A stretch of 64,000 nucleotides of DNA, taken from the NCBI RefSeq assembly GCF_022869805.1, contig NZ_CP094974.1:1488001-1552000 (forward strand). Reading direction: 5' to 3'. The position numbers and the translations under genes were made by a program. Below, one piece after another: positions 6,519 to 14,256 of the stretch; the stretch's first letter is position 1; every line of letters begins with the position of its first letter. The stretch is from Halosolutus halophilus. GTDB lineage: Archaea > Halobacteriota > Halobacteria > Halobacteriales > Natrialbaceae. A model generated the notes under the pieces. The model did not search any database, was not told the DNA's origin, and saw only the letters and a list, made by a program, of their open reading frames with translations.

Positions 6519-9257
6519 TCAGGCCGCCTCTTCCTGGAGCAGCCGTCGCAGCACGAGGTGCAGGACGCCGCCGTTCTCGACGTACTCGACGGCGGCGGGC
6601 GTGCCGACCTGTGCGGTCACGTCGAACTCGGTGGTCTCGCCGTCCTCGTCCTCGGCGACGACGGTGAGTTCGGCGTTTGGCTCGAGTCCGTCGTCGAGGC
6701 CGCGGATCTCGAAGTACTCGGAGCCGTCGAGGCCGAGTTCCTCCCAGCCGTCGCCCTCCGCGAACTGCAGGGGCAGGACGCCCATGCCGATCAGGTTGTC
6801 CCGGTAGATGCGCTCGTAGCTCTCGGCGATCGTCGCGCGGATCCCGAGCAGGTCGGTCCCCTTGGCCGCCCAGTCGCGGCTGGAACCGGTACCGAACTCC
6901 TCGCCGGCCATGACGACCAGCGGGGTGTCCTCCTCGCGGTAGCGCTCGCTGGCCTCAAAGACGGTGGTCTCCTCCTCGGTCGGGTGGTGGATCGTGTATC
7001 CGCCCTCCGTGCCGTCGAGCATCTGGTTCTCGATGCGCACGTTCGCGAAGGTGCCGCGCATCATGACCTCGTGGTTCCCGCGGCGAGAGCCGTAGGTGTT
7101 GAACTCGTACGGTTCGACGCCGCGTTCTTTCAGCCACTGGCCGGCGGGCAGGTCCTCGCCGAACGGCCCCGCGGGGCTGATGTGGTCGGTCGTGACGGTG
7201 TCGCCGAGGGTGAGCAGACAGCGGGCGTCCGCGACGTCCTCCACGCCGGGTTCCTCGAGCGGGAAGTCCTGGAAGAACGGCGGCTCCCGGATGTACGTCG
7301 ACTCGTCGTCCCAGTCGTAGACCTCGCCGGTCGGCGCGTCGAGGGCCTCCCAGCGATCGTCGCCCTCGAAGACGCTCGCGTACTTCTCCTCGAACATTTC
7401 GGGGGAGACGCTGTCGTGGATCGTCTCGCGAACCTCCTCCGGGTCCGGCCAGACGTCCTCCAGGTAGACCGGTTCGCCCTCGTCGTTCGTCCCGATCGGC
7501 TCCTCCTCGAGGTCGATGTCCATCCGGCCCGCGAGCCCGTAGGCGACGACCAGCGGCGGGCTGGCGAGGTAGTTCGCGCGGATCTTGGGGTGGATGCGCG
7601 CCTCGAAGTTGCGGTTCCCCGAGAGGACGCTCGTCGTCCAGAGGTCGTGCTCGTCGATGTCGGCCTCGATCGGCTCGGCCAGCGGACCGGCGTTGCCGAT
7701 ACAGGTTGTACAGCCGTAGCCGACGACGTGGTAGCCGAGTTCCTCGAGGTCGTCGAGGAGATCGGCTCGTTCCAGGTACTCGGTGACGACCCTGCTCCCC
7801 GGTGCGAGACTCGTCTTGACGTACTCGGGCACCTCGAGTCCCTGTTCGGCGGCGTTTCGCGCGAGCAGCCCCGCGGCGACCATCACCGACGGGTTCGAGG
7901 TGTTCGTACAGGAGGTGATCGCGCTGACGAGGACGTCCCCGTGGCCGATCTCGACCTCGGTTCCGTCCTCGAGTTCGACGGGGACTTTCTCGTCGAGGTC
8001 GGGTGAGGTCTCCGTGACCAGTCCTCCATCGCTGGTTGCGCCATCCTCGCCGCCGACGACGCCTTCCTCCTCGAGCAGCGTCGGGAAGTGCTCGTCCAGA
8101 TTGCCCATCGGAATGCGGGCGTGGGGCTTCTTGTGGCCCGCGAGGCTGGGTTCGACGTCGCCGAGGTCGAACTCGACGACCTCGGTGAACTCCGGATCGT
8201 GCTCGCCGAACAGGCCCTGGGCCTCGAGGTACTCGCGGACCAGTTCGATGTGGTCCTCGTCGCGGCCGGTGAGTTCGAGGTAGTCCAGCGTCTTCTCGTC
8301 GACCGGGAACATGCTGATCGTCGACCCCTGCTCGGGCGCCATGTTCGCGATCGTCGCCCGATCGGCGACCGAGAGCTGCGAGACGCCGGGGCCGTAGAAC
8401 TCGACGAACTTGTCGACGACGCCGACCTGGCGGAGCTTCTCGGTGATGTGGAGCACGAGGTCGGTCGCGGTCGCACCCTCCGGCAGTTCGCCGGTGAGTT
8501 CGACCCCGACGACCTCGGGTAGCGTCATCGTGATCGGCTGGCCGAGCAACGCGGCCTCGGCCTCGATGCCCCCGACGCCCCAGCCGACGACGCCGATGCC
8601 GCCGATCATGGGGGTGTGGCTGTCGGTTCCGACGAGGGTGTCGGGGAGGAGCCACTGTTCGCCGTCCTCCTCGCGGGCGTGGACGACGCGCCCGAGATGC
8701 TCCAGGTTGACCTGGTGGACGATCCCGGTTCCCGGCGGGACCACGTTGAAGTCCTCGAACGCTTGCTCGGCCCACTTGATCGCGCGGTAGCGCTCCTCGT
8801 TGCGCTCGTACTCGAGTTCGACGTTCTTCTCGTAGGCGTCCTCGCTGCCGAAGTAGTCGACCTGGACACTGTGGTCGATCACGAGGTCGCAGGGGACCTC
8901 GGGTTCGACGCTGGTCGGGTCGACGCCCTTGCGATCGGCCGCCGAGCGAAGCGCCGCGAGGTCGACGACCGCGGGGACGCCGGTCAAGTCCTGCAGGACG
9001 ACTCGCGAGGGCTGGAACGGCACCTCCGCGTCGGGGACGTCCGGTTCCCACGACGCCGCGTTCCGGACGTCCGCTTCGGTCACTCGTTCGCCGTCCACGT
9101 TCCGGAGCACCGATTCGAGCAGCACTCGGATGCTCACGGGGAGTTTCTCGAGGTCGCAGAGCCCCTGATCCTCGAGAACCGTGAGATCGGCCATCTTGTA
9201 CGTCTCGCCGTCGTGTTCGAACTCCCGGATGGCGTTCGAGACGTCATCAGTTGCCAT
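6519..9257 (-). CDS. acnA: Aconitate hydratase
   Basis: Aconitase interconverts citrate and isocitrate in the TCA cycle. The 912-residue protein belongs to the AcnA/IRP type by length. It shows the iron-sulfur cluster ligands in SAITSCTNTSNP and YGCTTCIGNAGPL, the substrate loop DSHTPMIGGIGVVGWGVGG, and the C-terminal swivel-domain motifs GEEFGTGSSRDWAAKG and GMGVLPLQF. The ATG is followed directly by a typical N-terminus. It stands alone on its strand, with about 250 bp of gene-free DNA before the next feature. The many Asp/Glu replacements fit a high-salt cytoplasm. Confidence 0.96.
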   Translation of the reverse strand: MATDDVSNAIREFEHDGETYKMADLTVLEDQGLCDLEKLPVSIRVLLESVLRNVDGERVTEADVRNAASWEPDVPDAEVPFQPSRVVLQDLTGVPAVVDLAALRSAADRKGVDPTSVEPEVPCDLVIDHSVQVDYFGSEDAYEKNVELEYERNEERYRAIKWAEQAFEDFNVVPPGTGIVHQVNLEHLGRVVHAREEDGEQWLLPDTLVGTDSHTPMIGGIGVVGWGVGGIEAEAALLGQPITMTLPEVVGVELTGELPEGATATDLVLHITEKLRQVGVVDKFVEFYGPGVSQLSVADRATIANMAPEQGSTISMFPVDEKTLDYLELTGRDEDHIELVREYLEAQGLFGEHDPEFTEVVEFDLGDVEPSLAGHKKPHARIPMGNLDEHFPTLLEEEGVVGGEDGATSDGGLVTETSPDLDEKVPVELEDGTEVEIGHGDVLVSAITSCTNTSNPSVMVAAGLLARNAAEQGLEVPEYVKTSLAPGSRVVTEYLERADLLDDLEELGYHVVGYGCTTCIGNAGPLAEPIEADIDEHDLWTTSVLSGNRNFEARIHPKIRANYLASPPLVVAYGLAGRMDIDLEEEPIGTNDEGEPVYLEDVWPDPEEVRETIHDSVSPEMFEEKYASVFEGDDRWEALDAPTGEVYDWDDESTYIREPPFFQDFPLEEPGVEDVADARCLLTLGDTVTTDHISPAGPFGEDLPAGQWLKERGVEPYEFNTYGSRRGNHEVMMRGTFANVRIENQMLDGTEGGYTIHHPTEEETTVFEASERYREEDTPLVVMAGEEFGTGSSRDWAAKGTDLLGIRATIAESYERIYRDNLIGMGVLPLQFAEGDGWEELGLDGSEYFEIRGLDDGLEPNAELTVVAEDEDGETTEFDVTAQVGTPAAVEYVENGGVLHLVLRRLLQEEAA

Positions 9258-9511
9258 ACTCGACCTAGTAAGTCACCACATTTGAATCCCCCGAGAATCT
9301 TCTGTACACACCTTATACACCCCGTATTTGTCGGAGTGTGATGTAGTACCACGGCCGGGGTCGGGAGACTCTCCAACCCGGACAGCACGACGGCCCGGGA
9401 GCCACGGTCGATCGCGCGAGACGGCCATCGGACTGAACGAGATGCGGTGCTCGAGGTCGTGCGCAAAATACGTGAAAACGGATCGAGGCGGGACGAGAAC
9501 GGAGCGGCGCG

Positions 9512-10108
9512 TCAGTTGCCGGTGCCGTTGTCGCCGCCGTTTCCGCCGCCGTCGCCGCCGTCTCCGCCGCCGTCTCCGCCGTTGCCTGCGCCGCCGTCGC
9601 CGCCGTTTCCGCCGTCGCCGCCGTTACCGTCGCCGTCGTCTCCGTTACCGTCGCCTCCGTTACCGCCGTTACCGTCGACACCACCGAGCATCGCCTCAAC
9701 CATGTCCAGCGCAGGGTCACGGAATTCGCCGTCGCCCATCGTTTCGCTGTCGCCAGCGCTGAGGTCGGCGTCCTCCGTGAAGAGGAAGCCCCACGTGGGT
9801 GCGTCCACGCCGAGGTCGTAACTGATGATGTACGCGTCCCAGTCGTCGGGGTCGTCGAACACGTCGTCCGCCGACCCGGACTCCTCGATCAGGTCTTCCT
9901 TCGTTGTCGTGTTCAGCGCCGAGACGACCGTGAAGTCCTGGCCGGGGAGGTAGTCATCTCCGTACACGATCACGTCGCCGTTCTCCTGGGCGGCAGCACT
10001 TCCTGACGTCGCGCCTGCGCCGAGGGCGAGCGCCGTCGTGGCGAGCGCTCCCTTCTTCATGAACGAGCGTCTGGAGTCGTCGAATAGTCCGCTATCTTCT
10101 TCTGTCAT
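9512..10108 (-). CDS. Tandem exported protein, copy 1 (Tat signal, Gly/Asn/Asp-rich tail)
   Basis: First of three paralogous neighbours. The 198-residue product has a Tat signal (SRRSFMKK, hydrophobic stretch, AAAQ cleavage region near residue 41) and a core domain of about 95 residues shared with copies 2 and 3. The core includes DDVFDDPDDWDAYIISYDLG, WGFLFTEDADLS and GDSETMGD. Unlike its paralogs it ends in about 58 residues of Gly/Asn/Asp (NGGDGG-type repeats). The ATG at 10108 is preferred over an in-frame GTG at 10117, because that GTG is part of the ribosome-binding site AGGTGAGAG. The acidic DxD clusters could bind calcium, which is an inference. Function unknown. Confidence 0.8.
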   Translation of the reverse strand: MTEEDSGLFDDSRRSFMKKGALATTALALGAGATSGSAAAQENGDVIVYGDDYLPGQDFTVVSALNTTTKEDLIEESGSADDVFDDPDDWDAYIISYDLGVDAPTWGFLFTEDADLSAGDSETMGDGEFRDPALDMVEAMLGGVDGNGGNGGDGNGDDGDGNGGDGGNGGDGGAGNGGDGGGDGGDGGGNGGDNGTGN

Positions 10109-10187
10109 GTCTCTCACCTAAGTCCCCTCTTCGGGGTAGACCTTTCTTGACCCAATTTTCGCATAAGTCAGTCCCATTGTTTCACCG
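10109..10187 (-). promoter_or_regulatory. Promoter and palindromic leader of tandem copy 1
   Basis: Read toward the gene, this holds a conserved block GGTGAAACAATGGG, then CTGACTTATGCGAAAA as the TATA region, then a palindrome CCCCGAAGAGGGG (10124-10136) and the ribosome-binding site AGGTGAGAG. The same order occurs before copies 2 and 3. Counting about 25 nt from the TATA region puts the transcript start close to the palindrome, so it is either a 5-prime-terminal RNA hairpin or a DNA operator. Confidence 0.6.
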
Positions 10188-10708
10188 TCTAAGACAAACT
10201 AAAGTCACAAATATGCCGCCATTAGCCACTACGGAGCCGAATTTCGGCACTTTACGGCGGCGCGAGATTCGGATGTCAACAATGGTTGTTTATCGATCGA
10301 AACGGGCTTCGGAACGCGCGATTCAGTCCGTTACTGTTTCTGATAGGTATGCGCTGTGTGAGCGCCGACCGCATCTCCCTGCTTCGCCCACGAGGATAGC
10401 CGATTGCGGCCTCTAAGGCGGTTTATCGTGTGATTTGAGGCGATAGGGACGGAGTACGCAACCCCTCATATAGCAAAACAAATGCTTTCCTCGGACTATC
10501 ACCGGGAAAATCAGCACCGAAAAACGGTCACAGCCCGTGAGTATCATCGGATCGGATGAAGTTTCGAACTGGCTCGTTCGAACAGTTGCGACCGCCGGCG
10601 CGTCGGGCGTCGTTCAGGTCGCGGTGAAGGAGGGCACTACTATCGGAACGGTCGAACGTCGCGCAACTGGGAATGAAAAGAAACAGTCCGATCGGATTCA
10701 GTCCGCGC
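10188..10708. other. Gene-free spacer between tandem copies 1 and 2
   Basis: No convincing gene is visible. The stretch is less GC-rich than the surroundings, and its only recognisable content is the 41-nt repeated element at 10475-10515. An 89-codon plus-strand frame at 10147-10416 runs through the conserved promoter block, starts with a TTG and lacks haloarchaeal composition, so it is not called. Confidence 0.5.
10475..10515 (-). repeat. Distal upstream repeat, copy A
   Basis: This 41-nt stretch matches 11491-11531 at 33 of 41 positions by eye, sharing TGCTTTC, CGGACTATCAC and ATCAGC. It begins about 367 nt upstream of the copy 1 ATG; copy B lies about 360 nt upstream of the copy 2 ATG. 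The equal spacing suggests that the duplicated unit included the gene and at least 400 bp upstream, or that the element is a retained distal control site. Confidence 0.6.
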
Positions 10709-11131
10709 TCACAACCCGACCTCGACCAGGCCGAGTCGGGCCCGCCGGAACGCTCCGTCGTCGCCTAACGTCTCGCTATCGCCGGTGCTGAGGTCTGCAT
10801 CCTCCGTAAACAGGATCCCCCACGAGGGGGCTTCCACACCCAAATCGAAGTCGACGATGAACGCGTCCCAGTCGTCGGGGTCGTCGAACACGTCGTCTCC
10901 CGCCCCGGAGTCCTCGATCAGATCTTCGAGCGTTCTCGTTTCCAGCTCTGCGATGACGTCGAAGTCGACGTCGGGCCGGTAGTCCGCTTCGAGCACGATC
11001 ACGTCCTCGTCGTCCTGGGCGGCGGCGGTCCCTGCCGTCGCGGCTGCGCCGAGGGCGAGCCCCGTCGTTGCGATTGTCCCTTTCGATACGGATCGTCTCG
11101 CGTCTGAGTGTCCGTTGGTCTCTTTTGACAT
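10709..11131 (-). CDS. Tandem exported protein, copy 2
   Basis: The 140-residue product begins MSKETNGHSDARRSVSKG and keeps the twin arginine, then a hydrophobic stretch ending AAAQ. The core matches copies 1 and 3: VFDDPDDWDAFIVDFDLG, WGILFTEDADLSTGDSETLG. It ends shortly after the core with LGLVEVGL and lacks the Gly-rich tail of copy 1. The ATG at 11131 sits 5-6 nt after AGGTGAGAG. The sequence is much more similar to copy 3 at the N-terminus (MSKETN) than to copy 1, which suggests an order of duplication. Function unknown; probably cell-surface or extracellular. Confidence 0.8.
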   Translation of the reverse strand: MSKETNGHSDARRSVSKGTIATTGLALGAAATAGTAAAQDDEDVIVLEADYRPDVDFDVIAELETRTLEDLIEDSGAGDDVFDDPDDWDAFIVDFDLGVEAPSWGILFTEDADLSTGDSETLGDDGAFRRARLGLVEVGL

Positions 11132-11210
11132 GTCTCTCACCTGCATCCCCCTGCTCAGGGTAGGCGTTTCTTGACCCCATATCGCTTAAGTCAGCCCCAT
11201 TGTTTCACCG
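11132..11210 (-). promoter_or_regulatory. Promoter and palindromic leader of tandem copy 2
   Basis: Same architecture as copy 1: GGTGAAACAATGGGGCTGAC, TATA region CTTAAGCGATAT, palindrome CCCTGAGCAGGG (11149-11160), then AGGTGAGAGAC before ATG. Relative to copies 1 and 3 the stem changes one C-G pair to T-A while staying complementary. Confidence 0.6.
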
Positions 11211-11722
11211 GCCAAGACGACCTGTACCTGAAAAACTTCCCTCTTAGATCCGCAGTGGCTCGGGTTCCACGCATCGTCGGTCCGCCGATCGGTCGATCCG
11301 GGGTCCGACCGCGTCCCGATCGGGACGCGGCCTCCCCAGTGCTCCGGCCCGTGAAACGAGTTGGTAGCCGGAATCGGGGCCGATCGGCGCGGCGACGATG
11401 GCCGACGGTGGATAAAACGCGAGTTCGGTGCAGAGCCGTCTTACGGGAGATTTGTAGCCGAAGACGACGCAGTTCGGACCGCCAGGAGACAAAACCGGTG
11501 CTTTCTGCGGACTATCACGTGGAAGATCAGCGCGGGGTACGAGTCACATCCAGTGGTTGTTTGAGGGTCCCGAACGACGGTCCTGAACGGCAGTTCTCGA
11601 GCACCGTACGTGTCGACGGGCCGAGCGGCGTTCGGGTCGCGCGAAGAGGGGCACTCCCGTCGAAACGTGCGAGCGAAGCGCCACTAGGCGGGAAAAAACT
11701 CTCGAATGGGATCGATTTGGGG
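11211..11722. other. Gene-free spacer between tandem copies 2 and 3
   Basis: Nothing resembling a conserved gene is visible. The GC-rich left part shows little similarity to the spacer of copy 1 apart from the CCAAGACGACCTGTACC block next to the promoter (also before copy 3) and the distal repeat at 11491-11531. A 192-codon plus-strand frame (11171-11749) crosses both and ends inside copy 3, so it is treated as a shadow. Confidence 0.5.
11491..11531 (-). repeat. Distal upstream repeat, copy B
   Basis: This is the counterpart of 10475-10515, with the same core words TGCTTTC, CGGACTATCAC and ATCAGC. A GTCACA word follows about 10 nt further on in both copies. A possible weak third copy, recognisable only by CCGGGAAAACGAG, lies near 12392 upstream of tandem copy 3. 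Confidence 0.6.
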
Positions 11723-12157
11723 CTACAGCTCGACCTCAACGATATCTAGCTGAGCGTCACGGAAATCCCCGTCATCGCCCATCGTCTCGCTGTCGCCGGT
11801 GTCGAGATCGACGTCCTCCGTGAACAGAACGCCCCACATCGGGGCGTTCCCGTCGTTGTCGGAACTGATGACGTACGCGTCCCAGTCGTCGGGATCGTCA
11901 AAGAGGTCGCCCCCGGCGTCGTCGATCAGATCCTCTTTCGTTTCGGTTTCCAGCATCGAGATGACCTCGAAGCCCACGTCGGGTCGATAGTCATCCGCTA
12001 ACACGACTACCAGGTCTTCGTTGTTATCGTCATCGTCATCGTCGTCCTGGGCCGCGGCGCTCCCCGCCGTCGCGGTTGCGCCGAGTCCGAGCCCAGTCGC
12101 GGCGAGCGCTCCTTTCGTCAGTCTTGCATCGGACCGTTTGTTAGTTTCTTTTGACAT
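11723..12157 (-). CDS. Tandem exported protein, copy 3 (twin arginine lost)
   Basis: The 144-residue product begins MSKETNKRSDARLTKG. The position of the twin arginine in copy 2 (DARRSVSKG) reads DARLTKG here, so the canonical Tat pair is missing although the hydrophobic stretch and AAAQ region remain. An Asp-rich insertion (seven Asp in a row) follows the signal. The core is conserved: DLFDDPDDWDAYVIS, WGVLFTEDVDLDTGDSETMG, ending IVEVEL. The ATG at 12157 follows AGGTGAGAGAA. It may use the Sec route, be poorly exported, or be decaying. Function unknown. Confidence 0.78.
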   Translation of the reverse strand: MSKETNKRSDARLTKGALAATGLGLGATATAGSAAAQDDDDDDDNNEDLVVVLADDYRPDVGFEVISMLETETKEDLIDDAGGDLFDDPDDWDAYVISSDNDGNAPMWGVLFTEDVDLDTGDSETMGDDGDFRDAQLDIVEVEL

Positions 12158-12235
12158 TTCTCTCACCTATGCCCCCTCTTCGGGGTGGACGTTTCTTGCT
12201 GCAATTTCGTATAAGTCGGCCCGTTCGTTTCACCG
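12158..12235 (-). promoter_or_regulatory. Promoter and palindromic leader of tandem copy 3
   Basis: It shows GGTGAAACGAACGGGCCGAC, TATA region CTTATACGAAATT, palindrome CCCCGAAGAGGGG (12173-12185, identical to that of copy 1), then AGGTGAGAG before ATG. The CCGGCCAAGACGACCTGTACC-type block immediately upstream is shared with copy 2. Confidence 0.6.
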
Positions 12236-12545
12236 GCCAAGACGACCTGTACCCGAAGAACGCCCCTATTAGGTCCCCGGCGGCACGGGTCCTGGCGTCG
12301 TCGATTCGCCGCTCGATCGAGAACGAACGCAATTCGCTCGACGCCGACCGCGATCGGGGACGGTCGTAGTCGGGTTCCGTCGACACGAACGCCGGGAAAA
12401 CGAGTGATTATGTGGTCGGTGACCGGTCACGACAACGGCCCGCTGACGGTGTGGTCGTCCAGCGATCGGGTCGCGGTGACGCCGCCGATCCCGGATCGGG
12501 GACGAGATCGTTCCGGATCGACGGCCGGGACACCGATCGAGGCCG
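12236..12545. other. Gene-free stretch upstream of tandem copy 3
   Basis: The stretch holds the upstream part of the copy 3 control region and the region downstream of the dihydrofolate reductase gene. GC-rich frames on both strands look like noise. No RNA gene or repeat is visible beyond the weak distal-element remnant near 12392. Confidence 0.4.
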
Positions 12546-13097
12546 TCACTCGCGGCAGGCGTACACCACGAACGCGAACCCGTCGCGTTCGTCACGCGAA
12601 ACCTCCCGAAACGACTCTCGATCCCACACCGGAAACCGCGTGTCGCCGTCGGGTGCGTCGTGAACCTCGGTGACGATCAGCCGATCGATCGCGGGCAGGA
12701 ACTGCTCGTACACCGACGCGCCGCCGGCAACGAACGCCCGATCGGTGCCCTCGTGGCGCTCGCGGGCCGCTGTTTCGGCCGCCTCGATCGCCCCCTCGAG
12801 ATCGGACGCCACGACGGCGTTCTCGGGCGTCTCGAGGTCCCGACTCGTCAGGACAATCGTCGTCCGGCCGGGGAGCGGTTCGCCGAGGGCCTCGACGATG
12901 CCCTCGTAGGTGACCCGCCCCATGATGACGGGATGGTCCATCGTCACCTCCTTGAAGTGCTGCAGGTCGTCGGGAAGGTGCCACGGCATCTCGCCGTCCC
13001 TCCCGATGACGCCGTTCTCCGCGACGGCGACGATCGCGGCGAGTTCGAGGTCGGTCTCGCGAACGGCCGCCGGGAGGGACTCGCGGGACGCGGTCAT
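12546..13097 (-). CDS. folA: Dihydrofolate reductase
   Basis: DHFR regenerates tetrahydrofolate with NADPH and restores the folate oxidised by thymidylate synthase. The 183-residue protein has the family signature AIVAVAENGVIGRDGEMPWHLPDD split over residues 17-40 (the Trp-His-Leu-Pro-Asp active-site loop, with the substrate-binding acidic residue), VIMGRVTYEG, TIVLTSRD and the NADPH-binding loop VAGGASVYEQFLP. The ATG at 13097 overlaps the thyA stop by 4 nt (ATGA), so the two enzymes of the thymidylate cycle are translationally coupled. Upstream in-frame residues are shadows of thyA. Confidence 0.95.
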   Translation of the reverse strand: MTASRESLPAAVRETDLELAAIVAVAENGVIGRDGEMPWHLPDDLQHFKEVTMDHPVIMGRVTYEGIVEALGEPLPGRTTIVLTSRDLETPENAVVASDLEGAIEAAETAARERHEGTDRAFVAGGASVYEQFLPAIDRLIVTEVHDAPDGDTRFPVWDRESFREVSRDERDGFAFVVYACRE

Positions 13098-14110
13098 TCG
13101 GCCACCGAGAACTCGATCCCCTCGTGGGAGTCGTACCCCCGCAACTGGACGTCCTCGGAGGCGAGGTCGTCGATCGACGTGTCCGCGAGGTCGAGCGTCG
13201 GGCGGTCGAGTGGCTCCCGCGACAGCTGTTCGAGCAGGCCGGGCACGTGATCGAGTCGCTCGTCGCCCTCGGCCTCCGGCGGCGCTTCGGCCTCGAGCCA
13301 CGCCTTGACGTCCAGATACGCCTCGCGATCGTCGACGGCGGCGAGTCGGGACTGCAAGTTGTCGAGGTTCTGACCGTACCAGTCGCCCCGATCACCGCGG
13401 CCGCAGTAAACGTGTGCATCGACGACGGTGTGGGCGAAGGTGCCGGGTTCGAAGCCGGTCTGCTGGGCGACGACTTTCGTCAGGAGCGCGTAGGCCGCGA
13501 TGTTGAACGGGATCCCCAGCGCCGTGTCGCCGGACCGCTGCGTGAGGTGACAGTTCAGCCGATCGCCCTGGACGTTGAAGACGAACGAGTAGTGACAGGG
13601 CGGGAGCGTCGAGACGGCCGCGTTGGCGGGGTGCCACGCGTTCACGACGAGCCGTCGGGAGTTCGGGTTGTCCGAGAGCGTGTCGATCACGTACTGCAGT
13701 TGATCGAACGTCCGGCGGCCGTCGTCCTCGACTGTGACCCAGCGGTGGGCGTCGTCGGGCCAAGACTCGCCCGCGAGTTGCGCGTCGTCCTCCGGGACCG
13801 GATACCGGCGCCAGAACCGACCGTAGGCGGTATCGAGGCGGCCGTCCTCGTCGGCCCAGGCGTCCCAGATCTTCGTCTCCTCGCGGAGGTTGCGGATGTG
13901 CTCCTCGCCGGAGAGATACCAGCAGACCTCGTGCAGCATCGAGTTCCATCGGTAGCCGTCCATCTCCTTCGTCGTGAGCAGGGGATACCCATCCTGCAGG
14001 TCGACCTCGTAGTGCTCGCTGAACGAGGAAATCGTGTCGACGCCGGTTCGATTGGGCTTGTAAGTACCCCCGGAGAGAACCGAATCGACGAGATCGAGGT
14101 ACTGGTGCAT
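13094..14110 (-). CDS. thyA: Thymidylate synthase
   Basis: ThyA methylates dUMP to dTMP using methylene-tetrahydrofolate. The 338-residue protein starts MHQYLDLVDSVLSGGTYKPN, followed by NRTGVDTISSFSEHYEVDL. The catalytic Cys lies in STLPPCHYSFVFNVQ. The dUMP-binding segment is QRSGDTALGIPFNIAAYALL, and TVVDAHVYCG follows. It is longer than the E. coli enzyme (264) because of an insert and a C-terminal extension. An in-frame start 4 codons upstream (14122) is possible. It forms a two-gene operon with folA, which overlaps its stop codon. Confidence 0.95.
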   Translation of the reverse strand: MHQYLDLVDSVLSGGTYKPNRTGVDTISSFSEHYEVDLQDGYPLLTTKEMDGYRWNSMLHEVCWYLSGEEHIRNLREETKIWDAWADEDGRLDTAYGRFWRRYPVPEDDAQLAGESWPDDAHRWVTVEDDGRRTFDQLQYVIDTLSDNPNSRRLVVNAWHPANAAVSTLPPCHYSFVFNVQGDRLNCHLTQRSGDTALGIPFNIAAYALLTKVVAQQTGFEPGTFAHTVVDAHVYCGRGDRGDWYGQNLDNLQSRLAAVDDREAYLDVKAWLEAEAPPEAEGDERLDHVPGLLEQLSREPLDRPTLDLADTSIDDLASEDVQLRGYDSHEGIEFSVAE

Positions 14111-14256
14111 TGTTCGACCCATTCGGACGCGGATACATGACGATTACGTCCCGGTCACGACCGATCGGAACACCGCCCGGTCGACCCTCACGATCGTGTA
14201 TATTTCCGCTGTCGGAAAGAGCAACGCTTACAGGTTCGTGCGTTCCGCTTTCGACC

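What the first reader, a model, noticed from the sequence alone, without database searches (positions are those of the whole stretch)
10109..12235. Shared palindromic leader element before all three tandem genes
Each gene has, in the same order, GGTGAAAC-block, TATA region, a palindrome (CCCCGAAGAGGGG in copies 1 and 3, CCCTGAGCAGGG in copy 2) and AGGTGAGAG. Copy 2 keeps complementarity while changing one stem pair (C-G to T-A), which favours selection on pairing or symmetry. The predicted transcript start falls at the palindrome, so it could be a 5-prime RNA hairpin controlling stability or translation, or a repressor site. Most haloarchaeal genes are leaderless, so a conserved leader is notable.
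Basis: partly seen in the sequence, partly recalled or inferred. Interest (0 to 1): 0.58.

Follow-up and report, generated by a model that had tools for sequence, protein, structure and literature searches.

The report
Conserved hairpin at haloarchaeal mRNA start
Three neighbouring genes for small exported proteins in a salt-loving archaeon carry, where their messenger RNA is predicted to begin, a short hairpin that relatives across two archaeal families also keep in front of this kind of gene, which is notable because haloarchaeal messages usually have no structured leader.

Summary
The palindromic leader is real in all three copies. The copies are tandem duplicates, so their likeness alone proves little; the evidence is comparative. 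Of 123 leaders of this gene family from 22 haloarchaeal genera, 104 keep a CCC-N2..9-GGG core. Among 75 non-redundant leaders it is 58, against 1-4 in control windows. The arms co-vary: 0 of 500 between-genus arm swaps pair as well. The hairpin is locked to the promoter: TTAT to CCC is 29-31 nt in 57 of 65, while hairpin to ATG is 7-27 nt. TATA, the -10 "AA" element and a purine start place the predicted transcript start at its 5' edge. Covariance models hit only this gene family strongly; the own genome has just the three copies. Best reading: a 5'-terminal mRNA stem-loop acting after transcription, through stability or translation. A DNA operator is less likely but open. No Rfam match; one haloarchaeal precedent (H. 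volcanii hp). No transcript start was measured.

The parts
9512..10108 (-). gene 1: small protein with twin-arginine signal and Gly/Asp-rich tail
   Evidence: ORF; TAT model hit
10709..11131 (-). gene 2: paralogue, 140 aa
   Evidence: ORF; 63-68% identical to the other two
11723..12157 (-). gene 3: paralogue, 144 aa
   Evidence: ORF
10124..10136 (-). hairpin copy 1, CCCC-GAAGA-GGGG; predicted +1 at 10137
   Evidence: sequence; stem starts 31 nt after the C of CTTAT, 30 nt after TTAT
11149..11160 (-). hairpin copy 2, CCCT-GAGC-AGGG, or CCCT-GAGCA-GGGG from 11148
   Evidence: sequence; fold
12173..12185 (-). hairpin copy 3, CCCC-GAAGA-GGGG
   Evidence: sequence; fold
10160..10167 (-). TATA box copy 1 (CTTATGCG)
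   Evidence: sequence; conserved column
11183..11190 (-). TATA box copy 2 (CTTAAGCG)
12208..12215 (-). TATA box copy 3 (CTTATACG)
10146..10149 (-). CAAG copy 1; its AA is the -10 'WW' element
   Evidence: conserved A-A 12 and 11 nt before CCC
11170..11173 (-). CAAG copy 2
12195..12198 (-). CAAG copy 3
10179..10186 (-). GGTGAAAC upstream promoter block copy 1
   Evidence: AAC invariant in 30 of 30 aligned class A leaders
11202..11209 (-). GGTGAAAC copy 2
12227..12234 (-). GGTGAAAC copy 3
10111..10119 (-). AGGTGAGAG before ATG, copy 1
   Evidence: GTGAGAG conserved
11134..11142 (-). AGGTGAGAG copy 2
12160..12168 (-). AGGTGAGAG copy 3

Best explanation
Each gene is read from its own promoter, and its mRNA begins with a short GC-rich stem-loop at the extreme 5' end (predicted +1 is the purine directly before CCC), followed by a short linker with a purine-rich GTGAGAG and the start codon. 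The stem-loop acts in the RNA. Because it is placed relative to the transcript start and not to the start codon, and the loop is not conserved, the most likely action is a general 5'-end effect: it shields the 5' end of the message from 5'-end-dependent decay and leaves the linker and AUG usable by ribosomes. Shown here: conservation, arm co-variation, promoter-locked position, restriction to this gene family. Inferred: transcript start, RNA as the acting form, effect on stability.
For: CCC-N2..9-GGG in 104 of 123 leaders, 20 of 22 genera; 58 of 75 non-redundant against 1-4 of 75 in five control windows. Stem score >=12 in 105 of 123, shuffles mean 42, max 53. Arm swap between genera: real 13.97, swapped 12.93 sd 0.28, 0 of 500 reach it. 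Pair counts on a model-fitted alignment: 24 cells changed on both sides against 14.1 when shuffled, 0 of 500; highest covariation score at slide 0. Loop length 3-8 nt; 34 distinct arm pairs and no loop consensus. TTAT to CCC 29-31 nt in 57 of 65, hairpin to ATG 7-27 nt. AA at the -11/-10 position and a pyrimidine-purine step at the predicted +1 in 45 of 56. A hairpin-less gene in another family with the same promoter has its ATG 29-35 nt after TTAT in 10 of 10 measured, which caps the start at about 29. Predicted 5' ends form the hairpin with P>0.5 in 54 of 58 (its two groups summed). Same arrangement in a second family, f17: 10 of 13 f17 leaders with a core have TTAT 30-31 nt upstream, and a model built without f17 finds L261, L268, L270, L280, L282 and L283.
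Against: No transcript start, half-life or structure has been measured. The core CCC:GGG pairs hardly vary, so most co-variation is in the two outer pairs; the outermost of these could lie upstream of +1 in long-stem forms. The window hairpins are only 4 bp and not unusually stable alone. In H. volcanii two tested 5'-UTRs did not change transcript level (PMC2636863 section 5), which speaks against a stability role for 5'-UTRs there. 19 of 123 leaders lack the CCC/GGG core; one of them, L131, has a GTCTC/GAGAC stem instead.
Confidence: 0.6

Rival explanations
1. A 5'-UTR stem-loop that lowers or regulates translation (for example by growth phase), as shown for the hp (HVO_0721) transcript of Haloferax volcanii, perhaps together with the 3'-UTR.
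For: Direct haloarchaeal precedent: a stabilised hp stem-loop abolished translation and a destabilised one gave constitutive high translation (PMC2636863 section 6). In class B leaders the 3' arm runs straight into GTGAGAG. In window copies 1 and 2 the MFE pairs the AGG of AGGTGAGAG.
Against: Hairpin position follows the promoter, not the start codon. Replacing CCC by AAA in silico hardly changes predicted AUG accessibility (0.62 to 0.64). Pairing of the AGG is not seen in copy 3.
Confidence: 0.3
2. A DNA operator: a repressor binds the palindrome at the transcript start and blocks RNA polymerase.
For: Archaeal regulators mostly bind semi-palindromes, and a negative semi-palindrome next to the start site is known for sptA in Natrinema (PMC6085418 section 15). 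The palindrome sits at the predicted start.
Against: Half-site spacing varies 3-8 nt and half-site sequence varies from TGCCC/GGGCA to CACCCC/GGGGTG and GTCTC/GAGAC (L131). In-stem T.G outnumbers C.A 9 to 4 in the core columns, and by my reading the four C.A rows are alignment shifts; few independent events. No other gene of the genome carries the element, and flanking ORFs in named relatives look like thyA, dihydrofolate reductase and aconitase (my reading of translations), so no regulon or adjacent regulator was seen.
Confidence: 0.15
3. A GC-rich initially transcribed sequence that tunes promoter escape or pausing, the pairing being a by-product.
For: Fixed distance from TATA; predicted start directly before the C-run.
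Against: Does not explain why the distal arm co-varies with the proximal one.
Confidence: 0.06
4. No function: leftover likeness from the tandem duplication.
For: The window copies are duplicates with high overall identity.
Against: Kept in 20 of 22 genera and in another family, while control windows further upstream show the core in only 1-4 of 75.
Confidence: 0.02

Closest known systems
Haloferax volcanii hp (HVO_0721) 5'-UTR stem-loop (Brenneis & Soppa 2009, PMC2636863)
   Same: A short stem-loop in a short haloarchaeal 5'-UTR; stability of the stem matters for expression.
   Different: One gene in one species, shown by reporter; no conservation reported in the sections I read; effect on translation, not transcript level. 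I did not test whether HVO_0721 is related to this gene family.
Bacterial 5'-terminal stabilising stem-loops (E. coli ompA, papA; B. subtilis aprE)
   Same: Hairpin at the very 5' end, sequence and loop not critical, ribosome site left free (features recalled; the papers were seen only as titles in the reference list of PMC3997798).
   Different: Different domain of life and decay enzymes; here only predicted.
Semi-palindromic repressor sites at haloarchaeal start sites (sptA SPS3, Natrinema; PMC6085418)
   Same: Inverted repeat next to the transcript start in a related haloarchaeon.
   Different: Fixed DNA half-sites (GAA-N4-TTC) just upstream of +1; here GC-rich, variable, at or downstream of the predicted +1.
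Rfam families
   Same: None matched.
   Different: The only two matches at E <= 5 were far below gathering scores and are chance.

Membership tests
Conserved cis-acting mRNA stem-loop | Base pairing kept in relatives, with co-variation | tested here: met
Conserved cis-acting mRNA stem-loop | Present in the transcript | not testable with these tools
   Inferred from TATA, WW and pyrimidine-purine start geometry
5'-terminal stabilising stem-loop (ompA/papA type) | Hairpin within a few nt of the 5' end | tested here: inconclusive
   Predicted +1 is 1 nt before CCC, within about 4 nt; not measured
5'-terminal stabilising stem-loop (ompA/papA type) | Removal of the hairpin shortens mRNA half-life | not testable with these tools
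   needs an experiment
Translation-controlling 5'-UTR stem-loop (hp type) | Stem stability inversely related to translation | not testable with these tools
   needs a reporter
Translation-controlling 5'-UTR stem-loop (hp type) | Stem covers ribosome site or AUG | tested here: inconclusive
   AUG accessibility hardly changed by the hairpin in prediction; AGG paired in copies 1 and 2 but not 3
DNA operator | Constant half-site sequence and spacing | tested here: not met
   Loop 3-8 nt; 34 distinct arm pairs
DNA operator | Specific DNA-binding protein | not tested
   no binding data
Known Rfam RNA | Score above a family's gathering threshold | tested here: not met
   window 9400-12600

The most novel reading that the evidence does not exclude
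A promoter-locked 5'-terminal hairpin that serves as a built-in 5'-end protector for the messages of one exported protein family across haloarchaea: a phylogenetically supported 5'-end stability element in a lineage in which structured leaders are said not to be typical.
Probability: 0.3. Interest if true: 0.7.

Novelty: new variant of a known kind. Interest (0 to 1): 0.5.

Why it matters
Translational control by structured leaders is described as not typical in haloarchaea (PMC4983044 section 8). This is a short leader hairpin with comparative support in 20 genera of one family plus a second family, tied to one gene family, so archaeal 5'-end mRNA stability or translational control becomes directly testable with a small reporter set. 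It also gives covariance models for finding it elsewhere.

Tried and rejected
Rejected: compensatory change in copy 2 as evidence (one C-to-T change). Rejected: the element as a genome-wide regulon (own genome: only the three copies; next R1 match E 1.9; exact spaced pattern 3 rows, which are copies 1 and 3, against 2 for the control pattern). Rejected: single-sequence folding as support for the window copies. Inconclusive: T.G versus C.A asymmetry (9 against 4; a looser count gave TG 6, GT 3, CA 5, AC 2; earlier counts, blurred by register slips, gave no clear excess). The plain MAFFT alignment put the two classes out of register, so I did not count pairs on it. An earlier arm-swap cut at the paired loop and is biased; I rely, where the cut is set by motif only; its subset with a long 3' part (5 leaders) shows no excess (194 of 500 swaps reach it). 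In some searches leaders judged by eye to lack promoter and hairpin were dropped; keep them, and starts from all and drops 17 of 75 that lack the CCC..GGG core. Non-redundant sets used a sequence-ratio cut of 0.88. One fold (L261) was of the wrong strand and is not used.

Protein side: no Pfam match for the three window proteins, only a TAT model and weak TAT-region matches in NCBIfam for gene 1 and scattered weak matches to single relatives; PDB sequence matches were only to N-terminal signal regions; AlphaFold model weak (mean pLDDT 61); Foldseek best E 0.69, VIA best Z 4.9. No function assigned.

Weak R2 matches (45-50 nt) that I read proved to be promoter-only, in front of another gene (leaderless or nearly so) in f17 or of stretches without a clear ORF; G026:C12:585213-585280 (E 1.6e-4) is an unrelated gene with a similar layout, left open.

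Literature: nine listings. None of the listed titles describes this element, but the library holds open-licence papers only.

Full report
What is there. The window belongs to a 5.06 Mb single-contig genome (G000:C1:1488001-1552000); the closest named relatives found by protein are Natrinema hispanicum, Haloterrigena sp. H1, Natrinema ejinorense and Natronorubrum. Three tandem minus-strand genes (11723-12157, 10709-11131, 9512-10108) encode paralogues, 63-68% identical to gene 2, with a twin-arginine type N-terminus. They are tandem duplicates, so the three copies alone cannot show selection.

Relatives. A profile of the family (A1) finds it in 77 of 125 genomes of the same family and in 105 of 392 genomes of the order. 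I fetched 120 upstream stretches from the family, taken from the top of the listed matches whose match starts near the N-terminus, and added the three window copies: 123 leaders. One search prints the 120. The same order of parts recurs: GAAAC, TTAT, CAA, a CCC..GGG hairpin, GTGAGAG, ATG.

More than chance. A stem of score 12 or more occurs in 105 of 123 leaders; dinucleotide shuffles give 42 on average and 53 at most. CCC-N2..9-GGG occurs in 58 of 75 non-redundant leaders and in 1 to 4 of 75 for five windows further upstream; over all leaders 104 of 123, in 20 of 22 genera. Leaders without it are mostly extra copies that also lack the promoter block (my reading).

Pairing. Stems range from 4 bp to longer ones, with 34 distinct arm pairs such as TGCCC/GGGCA, CACCCC/GGGGTG, CGCCCC/GGGGCG, ACGCCC/GGGCGT, GCCCA/TGGGC; L131 has GTCTC/GAGAC. 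Loops are 3-8 nt with no consensus; GAACA and GAAGA are commonest. If 3' halves are exchanged between genera, pairing falls from 13.97 to 12.93 (sd 0.28) and 0 of 500 exchanges reach the real value. On a model-fitted alignment of 65 distinct rows, 24 cells carry changes on both sides against 14.1 in shuffles (0 of 500) and the covariation score peaks at the true register. The inner CCC:GGG pairs are almost invariant, so they speak neither for nor against pairing; the number of pairs with a change on both sides (2) is not above shuffles. Related sequences inflate such counts.

Two layouts. In class A (the window type, A3) a short stem, mostly 4 bp, is followed by a spacer and then GTGAGAGAC-ATG. 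In class B (A4) a longer stem mostly runs straight into GTGAGAG.

Position. The distance from TTAT to CCC is 29-31 nt in 57 of 65 leaders, while the distance from the GGG core to ATG spreads over 7-27 nt. Among 56 leaders with that spacing, A-A stands 12 and 11 nt before CCC and a pyrimidine-purine step directly before CCC in 45; the base before CCC cannot be C by construction, which helps that count somewhat. The haloarchaeal promoter parts TTWT, CGAAA and WW at -10 are from PMC4983044 section 21; the usual TATA distance of about 26-27 nt from the start is recalled. This puts +1 on the purine just before CCC, with a second candidate four bases upstream. A hairpin-less gene in family f17 uses the same promoter and has its ATG 29-35 nt after TTAT in 10 of 10 measured loci; an eleventh, L323, was not measured because its second codon differs from the one the script looked for. 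So the start cannot lie much past 29.

Specific to the gene family. Model R1 (from 30 class A leaders) gives 88 matches at E <= 0.01 in 59 of 125 genomes. 87 lie inside upstream stretches of family genes and the last, G094:C1:3749493-3749570, ends at the family gene at 3749568: 88 of 88. Some of these are the training leaders. Model R2 (29 class B leaders) has 41 matches at E <= 1.2e-8 in 125 genomes, all in front of family genes. In the own genome R1 finds only the three copies, the next match at E 1.9. The promoter motif with at most one mismatch has three family matches and one other, G000:C1:3144240.

Deeper. Family genes in f17 have the same promoter-hairpin layout (for example ACCCC-GGGA-GGGG); 13 f17 non-redundant leaders have the core, 10 of them with TTAT 30-31 nt upstream (39 f17 leaders were examined). 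R2, built without them, matches six f17 leaders, L261, L268, L270, L280, L282 and L283, of the eight offered.

RNA or DNA. Variable half-site spacing, variable half-site sequence and tolerated T.G pairs favour RNA; the T.G count is small. No conserved regulator was seen beside the genes in the six named loci, where flanking ORFs read as thymidylate synthase, dihydrofolate reductase and aconitase (my reading of translations; not all in every locus). Predicted 5' ends form the hairpin with P>0.5 in 54 of 58, assuming a 5' end four bases before CCC.

What it does. A structure fixed to the 5' end, indifferent to loop sequence and to the distance from AUG, fits a 5'-end role such as protection from decay. 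The nearest haloarchaeal experiment, however, found that 5'-UTRs changed translation and not transcript level (PMC2636863 sections 5 and 6 read), so the translational rival stays strong. I put about 0.75 on an RNA hairpin acting after transcription in some way, about 0.4 of that on stability.

Novelty. No Rfam match. [quoted passage not shown] PMC3986360 reports that H. [quoted passage not shown] Weinberg 2010 (PMC2864571, passages) holds no mention of haloarchaea under the terms searched. I rate it a new variant of a known kind.

Noticed in passing
L308-L316, L325 (f17 genomes): Another gene, for a low-complexity hydrophilic protein, has the same promoter block as class B leaders but no hairpin, with ATG 29-35 nt after TTAT; a natural hairpin-less comparison.
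   Followed up: partly
L040-L045 and window 6519-14122: The family genes sit between dihydrofolate reductase/thymidylate synthase and aconitase in several named relatives as in the window (by reading translations).
   Followed up: partly
window 9512-9690: Gene 1 ends in a Gly/Asn/Asp-rich repeat tail that genes 2 and 3 lack; several relatives also have a tailed and a tail-less copy.
   Followed up: no
L299 (G026:C12:585213-585280): An unrelated cysteine-containing protein gene has a similar promoter, a GCCC-GACA-GGGC hairpin and GGAGG before its ATG (R2 E 1.6e-4); could be a second user of the layout or chance.
   Followed up: partly
L101, L102, L104, L113, L115, L117, L146: Extra family copies in some genomes lack both promoter block and CCC..GGG hairpin; how they are transcribed is unclear.
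   Followed up: no
window 10474-10539 and 11490-11555: A 66 nt stretch far upstream of genes 1 and 2 is 73% identical, so the duplicated unit is about 1 kb and includes non-leader DNA.
   Followed up: no
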